From positions 1 through 64,000 of the forward strand of contig JAUWYR010000004.1 of assembly GCA_030615745.1 (NCBI GenBank): a stretch of DNA of 64,000 bases, written 5' to 3'. The notes under the pieces are model-generated. The model was not told the DNA's origin, made no database searches, and worked only from the letters and a program-made list of their open reading frames with translations. Positions 104 to 59,530 of this stretch are shown here, one piece after another; position 1 is the stretch's first letter, and each line of letters starts with the position of its first letter. The position numbers and the translations under genes were made by a program. The stretch comes from Candidatus Zixiibacteriota bacterium. Lineage in GTDB: Bacteria; Zixibacteria; MSB-5A5; SM23-73-2.

Positions 104-460
104 AATACCTACCTATGAATATGGATGTAATTTGAGAGTTAAGATTTGAGAAAGAGATTTGAGGGAAAGTCTTCAGTAGGCAGATAGCAGTAGACAGTAA
201 ACAGAAAACAGTAAACGGTCTACGGAAAACAGGAAACGGAATTGTGAAAGAGAGTTGAGATTTGAGAAAGAGATTTGAGGGAAAGTATACAGTAGGCAGT
301 ACACAATAAACGGTATACGGAAAACGAGAAACGGAATTGTGAAAGAGAGTTGAGATTTGAGAAAGAGATTTGAGAAAGAGAAAAGAGAGTTCAGTAGGCA
401 GTGAGCAGAAAACGGTAAACGGAAAACTGTTTACTGTTTACTGTTTTCCGTGAACAAAAA
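104..460. repeat. three heptamer arrays separated by GAGATTT-type spacers
   Basis: This gap is almost entirely repeat. Arrays at 174-243 (10 units), 290-338 (7 units) and 392-454 (9 units) each begin with CAGTAGG and step in exact 7-nt units of the type CRGTAAA. In the third array the units change from CGGAAAA to the near-complementary CTGTTTA at 427 without losing phase. Between arrays lie GAGAGTT/GAGATTT/GAGAAAG words, also mostly 7 nt. The three blocks form a higher-order repeat of about 102-116 bp. The last array ends 6 nt before the stop of the Fis-like gene. No reading frame here is credible. Confidence 0.85.
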
Positions 461-3479: not shown

Positions 3480-3534
3480 CGAATTCTCTACTCTTTAAAG
3501 TTTTTTTCTCTTTCTCAACTCTCTTTCTCGATTC

Positions 3535-3678
3535 CGTTTCTCGTTTCCCGTGCTTCGTTATTCGTTATTCGTCATCCGTCATCCGCGTACCGTTCACCGT
3601 GTTCCGTTTTCTGCTTACTGTCTACTGCCTACTTTTCCTCAAATCTCAAATCTCTATCTCAAATCTCTTCTCTCTTTC
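3535..3678. repeat. long heptamer array between pyrB and pyrR, running into pyrR
   Basis: Fourteen uninterrupted heptamers at 3535-3632 pass from CGTTTCT through CGTTATT and CGTCATC to TGTCTAC. This joins in one array the words that occur separately in the CAGTAAA-type and ATGACGA-type arrays elsewhere. CTCAAAT-type units continue at 3638-3678 with one 6-nt slip. The pyrR stop (3654-3656) and its last codons lie inside this block. Confidence 0.85.
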
Positions 3679-4443: not shown

Positions 4444-4562
4444 GATGACGGTAAATAGTAAACGGAAAACGCAATTGAGATAGAGATTTGAGATTTGAGA
4501 AAGAGAAAAAAGGCAGTAAGCAGATGACAGTAGACGGGAAACGGTAAACGGTAAACAGTAAA
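4444..4562. repeat. two heptamer arrays with GAGATTT spacer
   Basis: Units at 4444-4478 (5) and 4514-4562 (7, CAGTAAG to CGGTAAA) are separated by GAGATTT-type words, the same composite as at 104-460. Open frames across this stretch on both strands are repeat-derived. Confidence 0.8.
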
Positions 4563-4575
4563 TAGTTCCTTGTGA

Positions 4576-4654
4576 ATGTTATCCCTGGCCGGCCTGCCCG
4601 GCCAGGGGCAGGCATCCACAAGGGAAAAGGGCTGGGGATGATAACATCCCCAGC
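4576..4654. repeat. imperfect palindromic element with ATGTTATC ... GATAACAT ends
   Basis: The outer inverted arms ATGTTATC and GATAACAT enclose G/C-rich stems, including CTGGCCGG and CCCGGCCAG. A relative with the same arms and a CTGGCC core lies at 55180-55246. CCCTGGCCGGGCAGG recurs near 4686. Confidence 0.65.
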
Positions 4655-20882: not shown

Positions 20883-21548
20883 ATGAGAAAGACGATAATT
20901 TTTATTTTAGCTTTATTTTTTCTTTTTGCAATTTTTCAAACATCTTTTGGCAAAAAGGAAAAGACCGGGAAAGTTAAAGGGAACGTTTTTACTGACAAAA
21001 AATTCGGATACCAGCTCACCTTTTTGGAAAACTGGAAGCTTTCAACTGAAAAAGAGCCCTCTCTGGTCCGGGCAACCTTGATGAAAAAAAACTACCAGGT
21101 TGACAGATCCACGAGATTCGGAGGGTATGAGGTAAACATCCCGACAATAATTATCTTAGCTGATACCACCTCCCTATCTCTGGAGGAGTTCAAAAATGCA
21201 CTTCTGGAGGAGAGCAAAAAGATAAAGAATTTGGATAAGTATAGGCTGAAACTTGAGTTTTTAACCAACTCAGAGCTTTTGCAGGAAAGGGAGACCTTAG
21301 TCGATTCTATTCCAGCTTTTATTTTGACCTTTAAGAAAAGATATTTTAAGACCACTGTAGATGAAACCCGGGGTATAACTCCTGAGGGAACTGAAGTAAT
21401 AGTTGAAGAGTTTATCGTCGGTCATATCGTTTTTTTCAAAAAGGAAAAAAATATTTTTTTGGTGCATTTTTCCTGTGAGCGACAATTCATCGGACCGAAT
21501 CATCGTGAATTTACCAATATTATGAATGGATGGGAATTTAAAGATTAA
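20883..21548 (+). CDS. secreted protein of unknown function (PsbP/DUF1795-like)
   Basis: 221 residues. A signal peptide of about 22 residues (LFAIFQTSFG) precedes a single globular domain. VFTDKKFGYQLTFLENWKLS resembles the opening strand of PsbP/DUF1795-type domains (FGYxLxxPxxW). The middle has DTTSLSLEEFKNALLEESKK and the end has FLVHFSCERQFIGPNHREF. Strong ribosome site AAAGGAG. No catalytic motif is visible and no neighbour reveals a role; probably periplasmic. Confidence 0.6.
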   Translation: MRKTIIFILALFFLFAIFQTSFGKKEKTGKVKGNVFTDKKFGYQLTFLENWKLSTEKEPSLVRATLMKKNYQVDRSTRFGGYEVNIPTIIILADTTSLSLEEFKNALLEESKKIKNLDKYRLKLEFLTNSELLQERETLVDSIPAFILTFKKRYFKTTVDETRGITPEGTEVIVEEFIVGHIVFFKKEKNIFLVHFSCERQFIGPNHREFTNIMNGWEFKD

Positions 21549-21552
21549 AATC

Positions 21553-21587
21553 CTAAATTCTAAATTCTAAATTCAAAATTCAAAATA
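21553..21587. repeat. heptamer array, 5 units
   Basis: CTAAATT three times, then CAAAATT and CAAAATA, starting 4 nt after the stop of the preceding gene. Confidence 0.75.
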
Positions 21588-21680
21588 GAATATAAGCCTT
21601 CTTAATTGATCAATCGATAAAATGCTTGCTGATTAACTTTTTAAGATTAAAGAAAATTTTTTAAAAAGTCCTCTTTTTGA

Positions 21681-23268: not shown

Positions 23269-25884
23269 ATGGAGAAGATAGGAACCCCATTGATGAATCA
23301 ATATTGTAAAATAAAATCTCTGTATCCACAAGAGATTTTGTTTTTCAGAATGGGGGATTTCTATGAGATGTTCGGAGAGGACGCCAAGATCGCATCAAAG
23401 ATTTTGGGTATAGCTTTAACTTCACGGGCACATGGAAAATCGGAAAAAGTTCCTTTAGCTGGTGTCCCTTATCATTCAGCTGAAAAATATATATCACAAT
23501 TATTAAGGGCCGGAAAGAAAGTGGTTATCTGTGAGCAAACAGAGGACCCCAAAACCGCAAAAGGGATTGTTAAAAGAGAGGTGGTTGAGCTTATCACCCC
23601 GGGAACAATAACCATCGATAGCCTTTTTGACTCGGATGAAAAAATTTTTTTAGCAAGCCTTACCTTTGATGAACAAAATGCTGGTCTGGCAGTTTTAGAC
23701 CTTTCCACAGGCGAGTTCAAAGTTGAGGAGGATTCTTTTCAGAAAGTAGTGGAGAAAATAAACGCGATAAAGCCAAAGGAGATACTTCTGCCTCAAAGAC
23801 TCTCTGAGAAAAAATCACTTGAGCTTGAAGATTTAAAAAATCAAGCGACCCTTACCTTTCTTGATGATTACAAGTTCAGCTATGATTATGCTTATCAAAC
23901 CATCACCAGCCACTTCAAGACAGCATCTCTGGATGGCTTTGGGATCTCGGATTTAAACTTGGGAATCTCGTCTGCTGGAAGCATCCTTTCTTATCTTGAG
24001 CAGACCAAAAAGACTTTCCTTTTGCACATCAATAAGATAACAAAGGCATCTTATGATGAGTGTATGTTTTTGGACTTCACCACCTTGAGAAATCTGGAGA
24101 TATTTTCTCCTTTCAGCTCAACTGATTCAAAGGATTTTTCTTTTAAGAAAAATAGTCTATTCCACATTCTGAATAAGACCAAAACCGCGATGGGAGCAAG
24201 GCTTTTAAAGGAATGGTTGAAAGCTCCCCTTTATAATGTGGAAAAGATAAAACAAAGGCAAAACTCAGTATCTGAGCTTTTGGAAAAAAGGGATAAAACG
24301 TTTGATCTTACAAAACTTTTAGACAAAATCCAGGATATAGAGAGGCTTGCTGGAAAGCTCGGTTATGGTAAAGCCAATCCAAAAGACCTTGTCGCACTGG
24401 GTTTGTCTTTGAAAAATGTTCCGGAGATTAAAAATCTTTTAAAAGAGTTTAACTCCGCTCTTTTGAAAAACATAAAAGAAAAACTACCCGATACCTCTGA
24501 GATAGTCGATCTGATCCAATCCTCAATTGTGGATGACCCTCCTTCGGTTTTAACTGAGGGTGGAATTATAAAAAAAGGATACAGCCAAAAGCTTGATGAG
24601 TTAAAAGAAAAGATAAAAACATCCAGGGATTGGATAGCCACCCTTCAACAGACCGAGAGGGAAAAAACAAAAATCCCTACACTTAAGGTTGGTTTTAACC
24701 GGGTGTTCGGATATTATATAGAGATCACCAAGCGCCATCTTTCCAAGGTTCCAGAGGGGTATATACGAAAGCAGACTCTAATAAATGCTGAGAGATTTGT
24801 CACCGAGGAGTTGAAAAAAAGGGAAGAGATAATCTTAGGTGCTGAGGAGAAAATCTTTGAACTCGAGCATGATCTTTTTTTAGAGATAAGGTCTAAGGTT
24901 GCAAAAAAAATTAAGGATATTCAGAAAACCTCTGAATACTTAGCCACTTTAGATATCTTGTTAAGTTTTAAGGAGGTGGTTTTAAATTATCGTTATGTTC
25001 GTCCTGAAATCGATTTAAGTGATGATATAATAATCGAGGATGGGAGACATCCGATTCTTGAACATCTGCTCGAAAAAGGATTTGTTCCAAATGATACAAT
25101 AATCAATTCAGACGAAAAGATTCACATCATAACCGGACCGAATATGGCTGGAAAGTCAACCTATTTGAGGCAGGTTGGACTTATAGTGCTTTTGGCTCAA
25201 GTTGGCTGTTTTGTTCCAGCTAAGAAAGCAAAAGTAGGTCTGGTGGACAGAATATTCACCAGGGTGGGTGCCTTGGATAGTATCGCAACAGGCAAAAGCA
25301 CATTTTTGGTGGAGATGAACGAAACAGCCAATATATTAAACAATGCCACCTCGAAAAGCTTAATCCTTTTGGATGAGATCGGTAAGGGAACATCAACTTT
25401 TGATGGGCTTTCCATTGCCTGGGCTACAACTGAGTATATCCACTATCATCCCAAGCTTTGTTCCAGGACTTTAGTTGCAACCCATTTCCACGAGTTAACT
25501 GAGTTAGCCAAACTTCTTCCAAAGGTAAGAAACTATCAGATAAAGGTTAAGGAATGGAAAGATGAGATAATATTTTTAAGAAAGATCGTCCCCGGAGGAT
25601 GCGATGACTCATTCGGAATTTATGTGGCAAAATTAGCTGGAGTTCCAAAGGAGGTCCTGGAAAGGTCAAGGGAGATATTGTTGAAATTAGAAGGAGAGGA
25701 GCTTTCTTACAAGAGGGTTTCAAAACCAGGGGCTTTCTCGCAAAAAAAATCTTATCAGTTAAGTATTTTTTCAGCTAAGGATAACGAACTTGCTCAGGAT
25801 TTGAAGAAAATTAATATAAATAAGTTGACACCTCTGGAGGCTTTGAATAAGTTGGAGGAGTTGAAGAGGAAAGCGGAAGAATAA
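23269..25884 (+). CDS. mutS: DNA mismatch repair protein MutS
   Basis: 871 residues, full length. The mismatch-reading FxE motif is in FFRMGDFYEMF at about 25-35. Walker A is GPNMAGKSTYLRQ near 622 and Walker B is LILLDEIGKGTS near 700, followed by the THFHEL segment. The C-terminus ends in a short helical tail. The start at ATG 23269 has no convincing ribosome site. The stop touches a heptamer array at 25883, and the S23 gene follows 51 nt later. mutL lies 2.4 kb downstream, separated by the S23 and KAP genes. Confidence 0.97.
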   Translation: MEKIGTPLMNQYCKIKSLYPQEILFFRMGDFYEMFGEDAKIASKILGIALTSRAHGKSEKVPLAGVPYHSAEKYISQLLRAGKKVVICEQTEDPKTAKGIVKREVVELITPGTITIDSLFDSDEKIFLASLTFDEQNAGLAVLDLSTGEFKVEEDSFQKVVEKINAIKPKEILLPQRLSEKKSLELEDLKNQATLTFLDDYKFSYDYAYQTITSHFKTASLDGFGISDLNLGISSAGSILSYLEQTKKTFLLHINKITKASYDECMFLDFTTLRNLEIFSPFSSTDSKDFSFKKNSLFHILNKTKTAMGARLLKEWLKAPLYNVEKIKQRQNSVSELLEKRDKTFDLTKLLDKIQDIERLAGKLGYGKANPKDLVALGLSLKNVPEIKNLLKEFNSALLKNIKEKLPDTSEIVDLIQSSIVDDPPSVLTEGGIIKKGYSQKLDELKEKIKTSRDWIATLQQTEREKTKIPTLKVGFNRVFGYYIEITKRHLSKVPEGYIRKQTLINAERFVTEELKKREEIILGAEEKIFELEHDLFLEIRSKVAKKIKDIQKTSEYLATLDILLSFKEVVLNYRYVRPEIDLSDDIIIEDGRHPILEHLLEKGFVPNDTIINSDEKIHIITGPNMAGKSTYLRQVGLIVLLAQVGCFVPAKKAKVGLVDRIFTRVGALDSIATGKSTFLVEMNETANILNNATSKSLILLDEIGKGTSTFDGLSIAWATTEYIHYHPKLCSRTLVATHFHELTELAKLLPKVRNYQIKVKEWKDEIIFLRKIVPGGCDDSFGIYVAKLAGVPKEVLERSREILLKLEGEELSYKRVSKPGAFSQKKSYQLSIFSAKDNELAQDLKKININKLTPLEALNKLEELKRKAEE

Positions 25885-25931
25885 TGAAGAATGACGGATG
25901 AAGAATGATTAATGACGAATGACGGATGACG
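25883..25931. repeat. heptamer array 5' of the S23 gene
   Basis: Seven units of type RATGAMG (AATGAAG, AATGACG, GATGACG) fill the gap between mutS and the S23 start. The downstream array 26309-26343 has the reverse-complement words. Confidence 0.85.
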
Positions 25932-25934
25932 AAT

Positions 25935-26309
25935 ATGGCGGTTTATAAAAAGTTTGAGGATTTGCCTGTGTGGATTTTGGCGAAGGATTTGGCGGTAAAA
26001 ATATATCAGGTGAGCAAGGGAGAAAAATTTCGTAAGGATTATGCTTTGGTTGACCAGATTCGAAGGGCATCTATTTCTATTTCGAGTAATATCGCTGAGG
26101 GGTTTGAAAGGGGATCGAAAAAAGAATTTATTCAATTTCTCTATATAGCCAAGGGTTCTTTAGGTGAAGTGAGAAGTCAATTGCAAGTTTGCTTTGAACT
26201 GGGTTATATGAATGAGCAAAACCTGAAAACTCTTTTATTGCAGAGTTATGACCTCTCGAATCAATTAGGTGCTTTTATTTCATCAATTAAGAAGAGGATT
26301 AGAATTTAA
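25935..26309 (+). CDS. S23-type four-helix-bundle protein (23S rRNA intervening-sequence family)
   Basis: 124 residues from ATG 25935 (an ATG 9 nt earlier lies within the heptamer array). Family signatures are FEDLPVWILAKDLAVKIY, QIRRASISISSNIAEGFERG and FLYIAKGSLGEVRSQLQ. Members were first seen inside 23S rRNA intervening sequences; relatives include the accessory Avd protein of diversity-generating retroelements. The role of free-standing copies is unsettled. Here it lies between mutS and mutL, bracketed by heptamer arrays of opposite orientation. Its last codons belong to a 65-bp direct repeat whose second copy precedes mutL. Confidence 0.9.
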   Translation: MAVYKKFEDLPVWILAKDLAVKIYQVSKGEKFRKDYALVDQIRRASISISSNIAEGFERGSKKEFIQFLYIAKGSLGEVRSQLQVCFELGYMNEQNLKTLLLQSYDLSNQLGAFISSIKKRIRI

Positions 26310-26359
26310 TTCGTCATCATTCATCAATCATTCGTCATAATTTAAGGATGAAAAATAAG
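26295..26359 (+). repeat. 65-bp direct repeat, copy 1 (S23 tail, heptamers, mutL leader)
   Basis: One mismatch from copy 2 at 28247-28311. It covers the last codons of S23 (KKRIRI), a 5-unit heptamer array at 26309-26343, and ATGAAAAATAAG, which equals the first four codons of mutL. After this point the copies diverge. Confidence 0.92.
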
Positions 26360-26399
26360 CTTATCATATTACTCGCAGTTGACAGGAGGTTGGTTAAAA

Positions 26400-28124
26400 A
26401 TGGGGAATAAAAAACAAAAGCCTGCAAAAATCTTGTTGGATGTTCCTGTTGATGATGGGGTTTTAGGTTTTGATAATTATAGGGATGCTTTGATAAATAT
26501 TATCAAAAGCTCCGAACCAAGGTTCACTATTGGAATCTTCGGTGGCTGGGGAACTGGGAAGACTACTTTGATGAAGATGATGAAGAAAAAGTTGGATGAT
26601 GAGGGAGAGGCTACGGTTTGGTTTAATCCCTGGGAATATGAGAAAGAGGAGCATTTGATAATTCCATTATTGCAAACAATTAATTTTGAGCTTAAAGATA
26701 AGAAACTACTAAATCCTCAAACACTTAAAAAGTTTGGCAAAGCTATACTTGCTTTAACCTCTGGCTTTACCGCAAAAATACCGGTAATTGGAGTGGAACT
26801 TAGCCCTAAAGATGCTATAGAATCTTACCAGAAACTTTTCGAAAGTAAAAACCTTTCATCCCTTTATTTTGACCTTAAGCAACAGTTGAAGGATATCATT
26901 AAAGAACTTAAAGAAAAAGAGAAATCAAGAATGATAATCTTTGTTGATGACCTCGATAGATGTTTACCAGATAGGGCACTTCAGGTGTTAGAATCAGTGA
27001 AATTATTTTTGGATGCAGAAGGTTATGTTTTTGTATTGGGTTTAGACCGCAGTATCATTGAAAAGTGTGTTAACAGAAAATATGGCGAAAACTCAGGAAT
27101 TAGTGGGACTGACTATATAAAGAAGATGATTCAGGTTCCTTTTAATTTACCTGGATTAAGGGAGCAGGAAGTTAAGGCTTATGTTAAACGATTACGAGAC
27201 GAGATAAAAGGGACAGACGTAGAGGTATATGTTGAAAAGTATATTGACATAATTTCTAAAGGAATGGAGGCGAATCCGAGGGAGATAAAAAGATTTATAA
27301 ATAATTTCATTTTAATAAATCAAATAAGCGCAGGAGAAACAGAGCCCGATAAGTTATTAGTTTTGTTAATAATCCAGTTCAGATGGGAGGGATTTTACAA
27401 TGCACTAGCTGAATATAAGACAGATTTTCTGGCTTCGGTACTAGCATATACGGAGGAAGATAGAGACGTAAAATCTGAGCAGGGAAGAAAACAATTCCTA
27501 GAGCACTGGGGATACTTAGAGTTATTAGAAAAGACCTTAGATGATGACTTAAACTCTTTTTTGAAGGGGGAAGGTAAAATCTTATTCGGAATCCAAGATT
27601 TAGACCCCTATATCCATTTTTCCAAAGCTGCAAAGATACCTGAAGCAGAAGTAAAAGCTCTTACAAAAGAAAAGTTAATTTCTTTATTAAGAAATGGAAG
27701 AATAGATGAGTTTAATAAAATTCGTCCACGCCCGACAGTAGATTTGGCAGGAGCTGATCTGAGCGGAACTCATTTAAGTGAAGCTAATCTGAGAGGAGCT
27801 AATCTGAGAGAAGCTAAGATGAGCGAATCTGATCTGCGCGGAGCCAATCTAGCGGAAGCAGATATAGGGAAAGCCCGCTTTTGGCGATCTAATCTAAGCG
27901 GAGCTGATTTAAATAGAATCATAATTGATGATTACACTATTTTTTTCAAAACAATCATTGAGAATGTCAAGAATCTATCGGAAGAAATAAGAGAGACATT
28001 AGATATTGAAATAGAAGACGGTGTTGAAAAAGCTACAAGCAAAGGGCTTTTCGAGAAAAAGGCGAAGGAAGAAAAGGTAGAATCGTCGGATATGAAATCT
28101 GACGCTACGAAAGAAAAATCATAA
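26400..28124 (+). CDS. KAP-family P-loop NTPase with pentapeptide repeats
   Basis: 574 residues from ATG 26400; GGAGG lies 11 nt upstream. Walker A is GGWGTGKTT at 48-56, followed by the KAP-typical WFNPWEY. Walker B is IIFVDDLDRC near 180, then LEAVKLFLD-type and GLDRSIIEKCV segments and a helical sensor region (NPREIKRFINNF). About 447-503 are pentapeptide repeats (ADLSG, ANLRG, ADLNR), then a charged tail. No KAP membrane insertion is obvious, so it may be cytoplasmic. KAP NTPases include phage-exclusion proteins such as PifA, but the function here is unproven. Bracketing by a 65-bp direct repeat suggests an inserted cassette. Confidence 0.88.
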   Translation: MGNKKQKPAKILLDVPVDDGVLGFDNYRDALINIIKSSEPRFTIGIFGGWGTGKTTLMKMMKKKLDDEGEATVWFNPWEYEKEEHLIIPLLQTINFELKDKKLLNPQTLKKFGKAILALTSGFTAKIPVIGVELSPKDAIESYQKLFESKNLSSLYFDLKQQLKDIIKELKEKEKSRMIIFVDDLDRCLPDRALQVLESVKLFLDAEGYVFVLGLDRSIIEKCVNRKYGENSGISGTDYIKKMIQVPFNLPGLREQEVKAYVKRLRDEIKGTDVEVYVEKYIDIISKGMEANPREIKRFINNFILINQISAGETEPDKLLVLLIIQFRWEGFYNALAEYKTDFLASVLAYTEEDRDVKSEQGRKQFLEHWGYLELLEKTLDDDLNSFLKGEGKILFGIQDLDPYIHFSKAAKIPEAEVKALTKEKLISLLRNGRIDEFNKIRPRPTVDLAGADLSGTHLSEANLRGANLREAKMSESDLRGANLAEADIGKARFWRSNLSGADLNRIIIDDYTIFFKTIIENVKNLSEEIRETLDIEIEDGVEKATSKGLFEKKAKEEKVESSDMKSDATKEKS

Positions 28125-28133
28125 TGGAGTCAA

Positions 28134-28233
28134 TGTAGGGACGGTCCTCGTGGCTGTCCGCCTAAGGATTCGGACAGGGACCCCCCGCCAGAGGCGGGGG
28201 ATTTCGCTATGCTCAACAAACCCTGTCCTTACG
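28134..28233. repeat. G/C-rich composite palindromic repeat
   Basis: Contains CTGTCCG paired with CGGACAG and CCCCCGCC paired with GGCGGGGG, then the ATTTCGCTATGCTCAACAAA segment. That segment is the reverse complement of the TTTGTTGAGCGAAGCGAAAT words in the 35479 copy. It lies between the KAP stop and direct-repeat copy 2. Confidence 0.75.
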
Positions 28234-28246
28234 TAAAACCAAAAAA

Positions 28247-28311
28247 AGGATTAAAATTTAATTCGTCATCATTCATCAATCATTCGTCATAATTTAAGGA
28301 TGAAAAATAAG
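28247..28311 (+). repeat. 65-bp direct repeat, copy 2, at the mutL start
   Basis: Includes AGGATTAAAATTTAA, which reads as the last codons and stop of an S23 protein (RIKI), although no S23 gene precedes it. Heptamers at 28261-28295 and the mutL start at 28300 follow. Confidence 0.92.
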
Positions 28312-30060
28312 ATCACCATACTTCCCCAAGATTTGGTTAACAAAATCGCTGCTGGTGAGGTGGTGGAGCGTCCGGCATCTGTTGTCAAGGAGCTGGTTGA
28401 GAATTCGATCGATGCTAAGGCTAAAAGTATTAAGGTGAAAATAAGATTCGGCGGGGTGAAATTAATAGAAGTTACAGATGATGGGGAAGGGATGAATCCT
28501 GAGGATGCGGAGCTTTCTTTAAAAAGACATGCGACAAGCAAGATAAAAGAAAAAGACGACCTTTATAATATAAAAACCTTAGGTTTCAGAGGGGAAGCTC
28601 TACCATCCATTGCCTCTGTTTGCTTTTTGGAACTTTTAACAAGACAAAAAGATGCACTTTCAGGAACTTTTCTAAGCTTAGAAGCAGGTATGATAAAACA
28701 AAAAAAAGAGATCGGCGCGCCTTGTGGAACATCTGTAACTGTAAAAGAGCTTTTTTATAATACCCCTGCAAGGCTTAAGTTTTTAAAATCCAAACTCACT
28801 GAAACCAAACATATAATCGACCTTATACAGAATTATGCCTTAGCATATCCATCTCTATTATTTGAGCTCGAATCTGACCAGAGAACTCTTCTGAATTTAC
28901 CAGCTTCAATTTTAAAACAGAGAATAGCTGACATCTGGGGAAATGATCTGAAATCAAAATTGGTAGAGATGGAAAAAGAAAGGTCCGACCCTGAGATTTT
29001 CGGATTTTTAGGAAAGCCTGAACTCACAAGGTCTAATCGTTCTGAAATACGCATTTTCGTTAACAGAAGACCTGTGGTCTCAAGGGTCTTAAATCATGCT
29101 ATACAATCGGGATATAGAGACCTTCTTCCACAGGGGAAATTTCCCTTTGCTTTTGCCTTTTTCGAGATAGACCCGGAAAAGATCGATGTGAACGTTCATC
29201 CAACAAAAAGGGAGATCAAATTCTCAAATGAACATCAAATCTACAATCTGCTATATTTGAAAGTGAAAAAGTCACTTAAGAGTTTTCAGACTATCCCTTC
29301 ATACAATCTTTCATCTGAAAAATTGGTATCTGAAAAGTCCGAAAAAGCTAAAGTTGGAGAAAAAATAATTGATTATAGCACAAAAATGCAAAAACCCGAC
29401 TTTATTCAGGAAAAGATAATTGATAAAATCTATCCTGCTGAAAAAAGGAAAGAAATTGAGCCAGAAGAAAAAACAACTTTTCAGAAAATTTGGCAAATCT
29501 TTGATCAATATATATTGGTCCAGAACGAAGATGAGTTATGGATTATCGACCAGCACGCAGCACATGAGAGGATACTTTATGAAGAAATAAGTGAGAATAT
29601 AGGCAAAAGTGGTCTATTATCACAAAAGCTGCTTTTTCCAGAGACACTTGAGCTCTCTCCAAAAGAGTTTTTGATCTACCGGGAAAATTCCGATATTTTA
29701 CTAAAGTTAGGATTTGAGGTGGAGCTTTTCGGTAAGAACAGCCTTTTAATTTCTGGGGTTCCATCTCTTTTAAAAAACCGGTCTGAAAAAAACTTTTTCT
29801 GTGAGCTTTTATCTGAGCTGGATGAAAATTTAAAAAAAGAAGGGGACAGGATAAAATCGGTTGCTAAAGCTTTTGCCTGTAAATCAGCGATAAAATCAGG
29901 CCTGAGGCTTTCTTATGAGGAGATAAAAACACTTTACCAGAGTCTTTTATCAACAAAAAATCCCTTCAGTTGTCCTCATGGCAGACCAACCATTATAAAA
30001 ATATCACTTGAAGAGCTCGATAAAAAGTTTATGCGAAGCATTCTTCGAAAAAGAACCTGA
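28300..30060 (+). CDS. mutL: DNA mismatch repair protein MutL
   Basis: 586 residues. GHKL ATPase motifs: KIAAGEVVERPASVVKELVE, NSIDA, DDGEGM and FRGEALPSIASV. The C-terminal domain keeps the endonuclease metal motif DQHAAHERILYE near 417, plus an ACKSAIKSG segment and CPHGRPT. It should therefore nick DNA itself, as in bacteria lacking MutH. AAGG precedes ATG 28300, inside the direct repeat. The C-terminal codons contain the 18-nt palindromic word at 30032-30049 (MRSILR), shared with truB and an intergenic site. miaA follows 8 nt later. Confidence 0.97.
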   Translation: MKNKITILPQDLVNKIAAGEVVERPASVVKELVENSIDAKAKSIKVKIRFGGVKLIEVTDDGEGMNPEDAELSLKRHATSKIKEKDDLYNIKTLGFRGEALPSIASVCFLELLTRQKDALSGTFLSLEAGMIKQKKEIGAPCGTSVTVKELFYNTPARLKFLKSKLTETKHIIDLIQNYALAYPSLLFELESDQRTLLNLPASILKQRIADIWGNDLKSKLVEMEKERSDPEIFGFLGKPELTRSNRSEIRIFVNRRPVVSRVLNHAIQSGYRDLLPQGKFPFAFAFFEIDPEKIDVNVHPTKREIKFSNEHQIYNLLYLKVKKSLKSFQTIPSYNLSSEKLVSEKSEKAKVGEKIIDYSTKMQKPDFIQEKIIDKIYPAEKRKEIEPEEKTTFQKIWQIFDQYILVQNEDELWIIDQHAAHERILYEEISENIGKSGLLSQKLLFPETLELSPKEFLIYRENSDILLKLGFEVELFGKNSLLISGVPSLLKNRSEKNFFCELLSELDENLKKEGDRIKSVAKAFACKSAIKSGLRLSYEEIKTLYQSLLSTKNPFSCPHGRPTIIKISLEELDKKFMRSILRKRT

Positions 30061-35295: not shown

Positions 35296-35368
35296 GCCCC
35301 TGTAGCTCAGTTGGATAGAGCAGCGGCCTCCGGAGCCGCGTGCACCCGTTCGAGTCGGGTCAGGGGTA
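35296..35368 (+). tRNA. tRNA-Arg(CCG)
   Basis: 73 nt: acceptor GCCCCUG/CAGGGGU, anticodon loop CUCCGGA on GCGGC/GCCGC giving CCG (reads CGG), T-loop UUCGAGU. CCA is not encoded. Confidence 0.95.
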
Positions 35369-35376
35369 GGATGAAA

Positions 35377-35612
35377 GTTTAAAATTAAAAATTTAAAGTT
35401 CAAAATTAAAAGAAACGGGTATTAGAAAAGACAGGTTATAGGTTATAGGTCATAGGTTGTAGGTGTTAGGGAAATAAATGTATGGGCGGGGTTTGTTGAG
35501 CGAAGCGAAATCCCGATTTATCGGGGTCCCCGCCTGAAAAAAACAGGTCATAGGTTATAGGTGGTAGGTGATAGGAAAATAAATGTAGGGGCGGGGTTTA
35601 TCCCCGCCCGAG
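35377..35612. repeat. mosaic of heptamer arrays and G/C palindromes
   Basis: Fills most of the gap before proS. Heptamer arrays at 35377-35411 (GTTTAAA type), 35434-35468 and 35546-35573 (GGTTATA type) alternate with two TGTAGGGGCGGGG palindromes. The palindrome at about 35479-35535 has inner CCCGATTTATCGGG; that at about 35584-35612 is GGGCGGGG TTTAT CCCCGCCC. Array, palindrome, array, palindrome suggests the pair duplicated as a unit. Confidence 0.8.
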
Positions 35613-59045: not shown

Positions 59046-59079
59046 TTTAACCGTAATAAATGGGTGGGGTGGTGGGGTT

Positions 59080-59114
59080 CTAATACCTAATACCTACCAC
59101 CTAACACCTAAAAG
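59080..59114. repeat. heptamer array in the tRNA-Pro leader
   Basis: Five units: CTAATAC twice, CTACCAC, CTAACAC, CTAAAAG; ends 3 nt before the tRNA. Confidence 0.8.
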
Positions 59115-59117
59115 AAC

Positions 59118-59194
59118 CGGGGTGTAGCGCAGTCTGGTAGCGCACATGGTTTGGGACCATGGTGTCGGAGGTTCAAATCCTCTCACCCCGACCA
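59118..59194 (+). tRNA. tRNA-Pro(UGG)
   Basis: Acceptor CGGGGUG/CACCCCG, anticodon loop UUUGGGA on CAUGG/CCAUG giving UGG, T-loop UUCAAAU. The CCA end is encoded (59192-59194). Confidence 0.96.
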
Positions 59195-59204
59195 GAGAAA
59201 GTTG

Positions 59205-59287
59205 GAAAACAGCAAACTGTTCACAGCTAACAGTAGAAAGTTTCGTAAAAACTGTGAACTGTTAACCGTTTACTGTGAACAGAAACT
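59205..59287. repeat. heptamer array filling the tRNA-Pro/tRNA-Arg spacer
   Basis: About twelve 7-nt steps (GAAAACA, GCAAACT, GTTCACA to GTGAACA, GAAACTG) run to the first base of the tRNA. Confidence 0.75.
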
Positions 59288-59361
59288 GCCCCCGTAGCTC
59301 AGTTGGATAGAGCATCTGCCTTCTAAGCAGAGGGTCGCCTGTTCGAGTCAGGCCGGGGGTA
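59288..59361 (+). tRNA. tRNA-Arg(UCU)
   Basis: Acceptor GCCCCCG/CGGGGGU, anticodon loop CUUCUAA on UCUGC/GCAGA giving UCU (reads AGA), T-loop UUCGAGU. CCA is not encoded. Confidence 0.95.
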
Positions 59362-59370
59362 GCTGGAGTA

Positions 59371-59449
59371 AGTAAACAGAAAACAGTATACGGTAAACAG
59401 TAAAAGATTTTTTTCTGTATACTGTTTACTGTGAACTGTCTACTGACAA
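59371..59449. repeat. two opposed heptamer arrays in the tRNA-Arg/tRNA-His spacer
   Basis: Five AGTAAAC-type units (59371-59405), a T-rich 9-nt link, then five CTGTTTA-type units (59415-59449). The halves are near reverse complements and could fold into a long hairpin. It ends 3 nt before tRNA-His. Confidence 0.8.
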
Positions 59450-59452
59450 CAC

Positions 59453-59530
59453 GGTGGGTGTAGCTCAGTTGGTTAGAGCACCAGGTTGTGGCCCTGGTGG
59501 TCGCGGGTTCAAGTCCCGTCATCCACCCCA
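59453..59530 (+). tRNA. tRNA-His(GUG)
   Basis: Acceptor GUGGGUG/CAUCCAC, with the His-specific extra G(-1) at 59453 facing C73, anticodon GUG in UUGUGGC, T-loop UUCAAGU, CCA encoded (59528-59530). Its 3' end is overlapped on the other strand by the stop and last codons of the recombinase remnant. Confidence 0.96.

What the first reader, a model, noticed from the sequence alone, without database searches (positions are those of the whole stretch)
26295..28311. KAP NTPase cassette bracketed by a 65-bp direct repeat that duplicates the mutL leader
Copies at 26295-26359 and 28247-28311 differ at one base. Both contain the end of an S23 gene, a heptamer array and the first four codons of mutL. The second copy carries the S23 tail codons although no S23 gene precedes it. 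The simplest reading is that a KAP gene plus a G/C palindrome was inserted at, or duplicated with, the S23-mutL junction, leaving mutS-S23-[KAP]-mutL.
Basis: seen in the sequence. Interest (0 to 1): 0.75.

Follow-up and report, generated by a model that had tools for sequence, protein, structure and literature searches.

The report
KAP gene between duplicated mutL leaders
In a Zixibacteria genome a single ATPase gene that resembles known phage-defence genes sits inside the mutS-mutL repair-gene pair between two almost identical copies of the mutL leader, so it is an old gene gain whose flanking repeats have stayed strangely young and would let it be lost without a trace.

Summary
The repeat is real: 26289-26359 and 28241-28311 match at 68 of 71 bases, with a perfect 57-base core holding the S23 stop, the right heptamer array and the first four mutL codons. 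Relatives confirm a KAP-less site: G007 has S23, one array set, then mutL; G009 has a decayed S23 there. The sister species SM23_73_2 (G001) has mutS-S23-array-mutL head-KAP, so KAP arrived before the two species split (synonymous sites saturated). Yet the two copies here differ at 0/57 core sites, while the first copy differs from its G001 counterpart at 8/57. The repeat is therefore not a frozen scar: the copies were homogenised, or the second was re-made, later. The G/C palindrome is not part of the cassette; it is a dispersed MITE-like repeat with at least 13 other copies. KAP starts at 26400, lacks clear membrane segments, carries pentapeptide repeats and resembles PDC-S20, PifA and QatA defence NTPases. 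No recombinase or terminal inverted repeats were found. The second junction could not be checked in G001, whose contig ends inside KAP. The broader surprise is that orphan S23 genes in at least two phyla are bracketed by inverted, gene-specific heptamer arrays.

The parts
23269..25884 (+). mutS
   Evidence: Pfam MutS_I to MutS_V
25879..25934 (+). left heptamer array of the S23 gene; begins inside the last codons of mutS
   Evidence: period-7 scan; inverted match to the right array
25935..26309 (+). S23 / four-helix bundle gene (23S_rRNA_IVP); start set by comparison with G001
   Evidence: PF05635 E 4.8e-35, TIGR02436, comparison with G001
26289..26359 (+). repeat copy R1: S23 tail, right heptamer array, mutL ribosome-binding region and first four mutL codons
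26348..26410 (+). leader ORF that starts with the copied mutL codons (MKNKLIILLAVDRRLVKNGE) and ends just inside the KAP start; G001 has MKNKIKNNLLLTGG ending just before KAP
   Evidence: sequence read
26400..28124 (+). KAP P-loop NTPase with C-terminal pentapeptide repeats, 574 aa
   Evidence: PF07693 E 9.6e-49 and PF00805; PDC-S20, QatA, PifA profiles; start by comparison with G001
28133..28234 (.). MITE-like dispersed repeat with G/C palindrome, not part of the KAP gain
   Evidence: at least 13 related copies elsewhere in the genome; also in G001
28241..28311 (+). repeat copy R2: S23 tail, right heptamer array, mutL ribosome-binding region and first four mutL codons
28300..30060 (+). mutL
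   Evidence: Pfam MutL_C, DNA_mis_repair

Best explanation
A single KAP NTPase gene with its own ribosome-binding site was captured in the mutS-S23-mutL operon in the common ancestor of this species and SM23_73_2. The capture duplicated at least 71 bases of the junction (S23 tail, right heptamer array, mutL start). The result keeps both neighbours intact: S23 keeps its tail and array, mutL keeps its own leader, and the spare mutL start in front of KAP now opens a short leader ORF that ends at the KAP start, where it could couple translation. The two copies have since been kept alike by recombination between them (gene conversion, or loss and regain of the cassette). A crossover between them would delete KAP exactly and restore S23-array-mutL in frame. 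Shown: the repeat, the shared first junction, the KAP-less relative, purifying selection on KAP. Inferred: the capture mechanism (most likely filled-in repair of a staggered or hairpin-induced break, or template switching), the homogenisation, the coupling, and any defence role.
For: Repeat present and unique to this locus. Among about 80 S23 loci examined only this one has its right terminus repeated beyond a further gene. KAP-less S23-array-mutL in G007, with S23 tree support 0.81 for G000+G001+G007; decayed S23 tail before mutL and a left array after mutS in G009. First junction shared by G001, contig LJUW01000065.1 of Zixibacteria bacterium SM23_73_2. Native mutL starts mostly M-x-x-K-I, MKNKIK in G012; G001 has MKNKIK in front of KAP. 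dN/dS between the species about 0.07 for KAP (118 codons), 0.05 for S23, 0.07 for mutS, with dS 1.3-1.6 for all three, so KAP has descended with its neighbours. R1 against R2 0/57 in the core while R1 against G001 8/57.
Against: The second junction rests on one assembly, since G001 lacks the rest of KAP and mutL. The S23 tail in R2 keeps the older state at three sites where R1 has changed, so homogenisation, if any, did not cover the tail recently. MKNKI is a common start in an A+T-rich genome, so the mutL origin of those codons in G001 is likely, not certain. No trace of how the DNA was captured remains, and only one pair of species is available.
Confidence: 0.55

Rival explanations
1. KAP was inserted first without a second array, and the second copy arose later in this lineage only, as a local duplication of R1 into the KAP-mutL gap.
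For: R1 and R2 are identical over 57 bases while G001 R1 differs at 8; R2 keeps tail states shared with G001, so it could have been copied after the array changed but before the R1 tail changed.
Against: G001 already has mutL-like start codons in front of KAP, so at least the mutL head appears to have been duplicated before the split.
Confidence: 0.22
2. The KAP cassette still cycles: recombination between R1 and R2 excises it as a circle or deletes it, and it re-enters by homology at the single array, which keeps the copies alike.
For: Long direct repeats around one gene, near-identity despite great age.
Against: No integrase, transposase or replication gene in the interval; KAP shows the same divergence as its neighbours, as expected of a resident gene; no reads to look for circles.
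Confidence: 0.12
3. A transposon-like insertion with an unusually long target-site duplication.
For: Direct repeats immediately flank the inserted gene.
Against: No transposase and no inverted repeats at the ends of the KAP segment; duplications of 65 bases or more are outside what I know for bacterial transposases; no second locus with this KAP segment in 59 related genomes.
Confidence: 0.05
4. Assembly artefact: a chimeric join at the repeat.
For: Genome in 74 contigs; an exact repeat of 57 bases is near common k-mer sizes.
Against: R1 and R2 differ in their tails and have different flanks, the first junction is in an independent assembly of another species, and mutS-mutL order is normal in relatives.
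Confidence: 0.06

Closest known systems
KAP family NTPases of the PDC-S20 / PifA / QatA kind
   Same: KAP domain with intact Walker A (GGWGTGKTT) and Walker B (IIFVDDLDRC); profile matches 5e-43, 4.7e-32, 1.1e-38.
   Different: QatA curated cut-off not reached (145 against 600 bits); pentapeptide C-terminus; no strong hydrophobic segment; neighbours are mutS, S23 and mutL, not Qat partners.
23S rRNA intervening sequences with an S23p ORF (Coxiella burnetii IVS, PMC4990558)
   Same: S23 ORF, tandem heptamers in front of it, complementary ends.
   Different: Here the gene lies between mutS and mutL, not in a 23S rRNA gene, and one end is duplicated around a KAP gene.
Insertions bracketed by long direct repeats that allow exact deletion
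   Same: One gene between direct repeats; a crossover would restore the KAP-less site.
   Different: No recombinase; the repeats contain the start of a housekeeping gene and stay alike over a deep species split.
Heptameric intergenic repeats (STRR of cyanobacteria, from memory; abundance of heptameric repeats in bacteria noted in PMC4692102)
   Same: Tandem 7-base units in intergenic DNA.
   Different: Here arrays bracket S23 genes in inverted orientation, each gene with its own unit.

Membership tests
KAP NTPase (PF07693) | profile match over cut-off with Walker A and B motifs | tested here: met
   166.6 bits against cut-off 20; motifs in the translation
KAP NTPase (PF07693) | transmembrane helices in the P-loop domain, common in the family but not required (own knowledge) | tested here: not met
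   highest 19-residue hydropathy mean 1.46
Qat anti-phage system | QatA over the curated cut-off | tested here: not met
   144.9 bits against 600
PDC-S20 candidate defence gene | profile match along the protein | tested here: inconclusive
   5e-43 over residues 6-359, profile 5-378 of 464; no curated cut-off shown
S23 / 23S rRNA intervening sequence protein (PF05635) | profile match over cut-off | tested here: met
   120.4 bits against 33.8
23S rRNA intervening sequence element | lies inside a 23S rRNA gene | tested here: not met
   lies between mutS and mutL; no Rfam match in 25800-28400
23S rRNA intervening sequence element | complementary ends around the S23 ORF | tested here: met
   30-nt arms, 80% complementary; same pattern at many other S23 loci
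transposon / integrative element | transposase, integrase or terminal inverted repeats in the inserted segment | tested here: not met
   only KAP is encoded; no inverted repeat joins its ends
excisable cassette | deleted or circular form exists in the population | not testable with these tools
   no raw reads

The most novel reading that the evidence does not exclude
Orphan S23 genes with their inverted heptamer arrays are a widespread class of genetic element whose array ends are recombination-active, and here such an end was copied to bring in and hold a defence-like gene inside the mutS-mutL operon; the arrays, not a recombinase, would be the agents of gene capture and of the homogenisation.
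Probability: 0.1. Interest if true: 0.7.

Novelty: new member of a known kind. Interest (0 to 1): 0.36.

Why it matters
A defence-like gene lodged in the mismatch-repair operon, with a spare copy of the mutL start in front of it and exact-deletion repeats on both sides, is a natural test case for how bacteria gain and lose single defence genes without harming important neighbours. The mismatch between the age of the gene and the youth of its repeats makes ongoing recombination at the site directly testable. The wider pattern behind the repeat, S23 genes bracketed by gene-specific inverted heptamer arrays in at least two phyla, may help explain what the long-puzzling S23 proteins act on.

Tried and rejected
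The first genome-contig scan with KAP alone found nothing; the second, with the two-species alignment, found the sister contig and otherwise relatives at 36% or less. G001 was searched for the KAP end and mutL: absent from that assembly. Other S23 loci were checked for a second copy of their right end with cargo between: none. Coupled change of left and right arrays between orthologous S23 loci was clear only for L097/L102, not for the other five pairs, so no claim of covariation is made. Rfam finds nothing in 25800-28400. Literature searches found only the Coxiella heptamers.

Full report
Observation. The repeat exists as described. One search gives 26289-26368 and 28241-28320 as the largest direct repeat in the region (80 nt, 93%). 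From the S23 tail to the fourth mutL codon (26289-26359 against 28241-28311) the copies differ at three sites, all A in the second copy and G in the first, all in the S23 tail; the other 57 bases (26303-26359) are identical. The second copy has the tail codons AAA AAA AGG ATT AAA ATT TAA without an S23 gene. One search found no third copy in the genome.

Anatomy. mutS ends at 25884 and its last codons merge into a tandem heptamer array (25879-25934). S23 (PF05635; start 25935 by comparison with the sister) follows, then the inverted right array, then the mutL start codons ATGAAAAATAAG. In R1 these codons open a 20-codon ORF that ends at 26410, just inside the KAP start. KAP begins at ATG 26400 behind AGGAGG; the TTG start 26379 is excluded because the sister has two stops there. 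KAP has 574 aa: KAP domain, then pentapeptide repeats. Eight bases after its stop lies a G/C-rich element, 28133-28234, of which at least 13 relatives lie elsewhere in this genome and several in the sister. Its ends (ATGTAGGGAC / GTCCTTACGT) read like the terminal repeats of a MITE. It abuts R2, then mutL.

Relatives. It has mutS-S23-array-ATGAAAAATAAAATT-KAP, and the contig stops inside KAP. mutL and the rest of KAP are missing from that assembly. G007 of the same order has mutS, a TPR gene, array, S23, array, mutL, without KAP; its S23 is 67% identical and groups with ours and that of G001 (support 0.81). G009 has a left array after mutS and a decayed S23 tail shortly before mutL. So S23 before mutL is older than the genus, and KAP was added at the S23-mutL junction.

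Where the duplicated codons come from. mutL starts across the class mostly read M-x-x-K-I, for example MKNKIKVLP in G012, MPTKIKILP in G006, MVEKIEILP in G010. G001 has MKNKIK in front of KAP. The copied codons are therefore most likely mutL codons, and the duplication of the mutL head predates the species split.

Age against likeness. Between the two species dS is 1.27 for the KAP part available, 1.63 for S23 and 1.55 for mutS, with dN 0.084, 0.075 and 0.107: saturated synonymous sites, strong purifying selection, and no sign that KAP is younger than its neighbours. In the 57-base core R1 and R2 of this genome differ at 0 sites, while R1 differs from R1 of G001 at 8. If the copies had diverged independently since before the split, about 8 or more differences would be expected; the Poisson chance of none is about 0.0003 (my calculation, which treats sites as independent). 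Either the copies were homogenised, or the array part of the second copy was made anew in this lineage. In the tail, R2 keeps the state shared with G001 at three sites (9 differences to G001 against 12 for R1 in 71 bases), so R2 is not simply a fresh copy of today's R1.

Mechanism. What is shown: gain of one gene at the junction with duplication of the junction, long retention, and copies that remain alike. What is inferred: capture during repair of a break at the junction, which the hairpin-forming arrays could favour; later recombination between the copies; exact deletion as the expected product of a crossover; translational coupling of KAP to the copied mutL start. No transposase, integrase or terminal inverted repeat was found.

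What KAP may do. PADLOC profiles give PDC-S20 (5e-43), QatA and PifA; NCBIfam QatA is far below its cut-off. Relatives found at 36% or less carry other C-terminal parts, several ending in what looks by eye like a formylglycine-generating-enzyme domain, so the pentapeptide part looks like a swappable end. A defence role is plausible and untested.

The wider pattern. The repeated piece is one end of an S23 unit. At about 80 S23 loci in this phylum the two flanks show a clearly raised period of 7, and each gene's left array tends to match the inverse of its own right array: 45 of 80 score 15 or more, against 1 of 80 with swapped partners. The same holds for S23 genes of three genomes labelled as Bacteroidota (11 of 18 against 2 of 306). 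Of eight S23 loci in this genome six besides the present one have a counterpart at the same site in G001, so these units are stable. Coxiella's 23S rRNA intervening sequence has tandem heptamers (GACAGAT) before its S23p ORF and complementary ends (PMC4990558). I found no paper describing the pattern for orphan S23 genes in the open-access library, which is not proof that none exists. In the window itself 14 heptamer arrays occur and almost none of other periods from 4 to 12, most of them away from S23, so heptamer arrays are a trait of the whole genome.

Verdict.

Noticed in passing
window 25879-26338 and S23 loci L037-L142, L212-L237: Orphan S23 (PF05635) genes are bracketed by inverted tandem heptamer arrays whose unit differs from gene to gene (45/80 against 1/80 with swapped partners in Zixibacteria; 11/18 against 2/306 in Bacteroidota).
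   Followed up: partly
window 174-237, 398-455, 874-962, 3531-3633, 4513-4577, 21533-21601, 35366-35475, 59077-59450: Intergenic tandem heptamer arrays without an S23 gene; 14 arrays in the window against 0 or 1 for every other period from 4 to 12. Several lie beside tRNA genes (59118-59530).
   Followed up: partly
window 28133-28234; L022-L036: Dispersed MITE-like repeat (ATGTAGGGAC...GTCCCTACAT with a G/C palindrome), at least 13 other copies in the genome and present in the sister species.
   Followed up: partly
L097 and L102 (tRNA region in G000 and G001): At this shared S23 site the heptamers of the two species have quite different sequences while each species keeps its own left and right arrays complementary.
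   Followed up: partly
L047, L121, L126, L141, L142, L105: Several S23 genes are broken by in-frame stops or frameshifts, so the family is gained and decays.
   Followed up: no
L156, L157, L162: KAP NTPases with a C-terminus that looks like a formylglycine-generating-enzyme domain instead of pentapeptide repeats, suggesting a modular, defence-type architecture.
   Followed up: no
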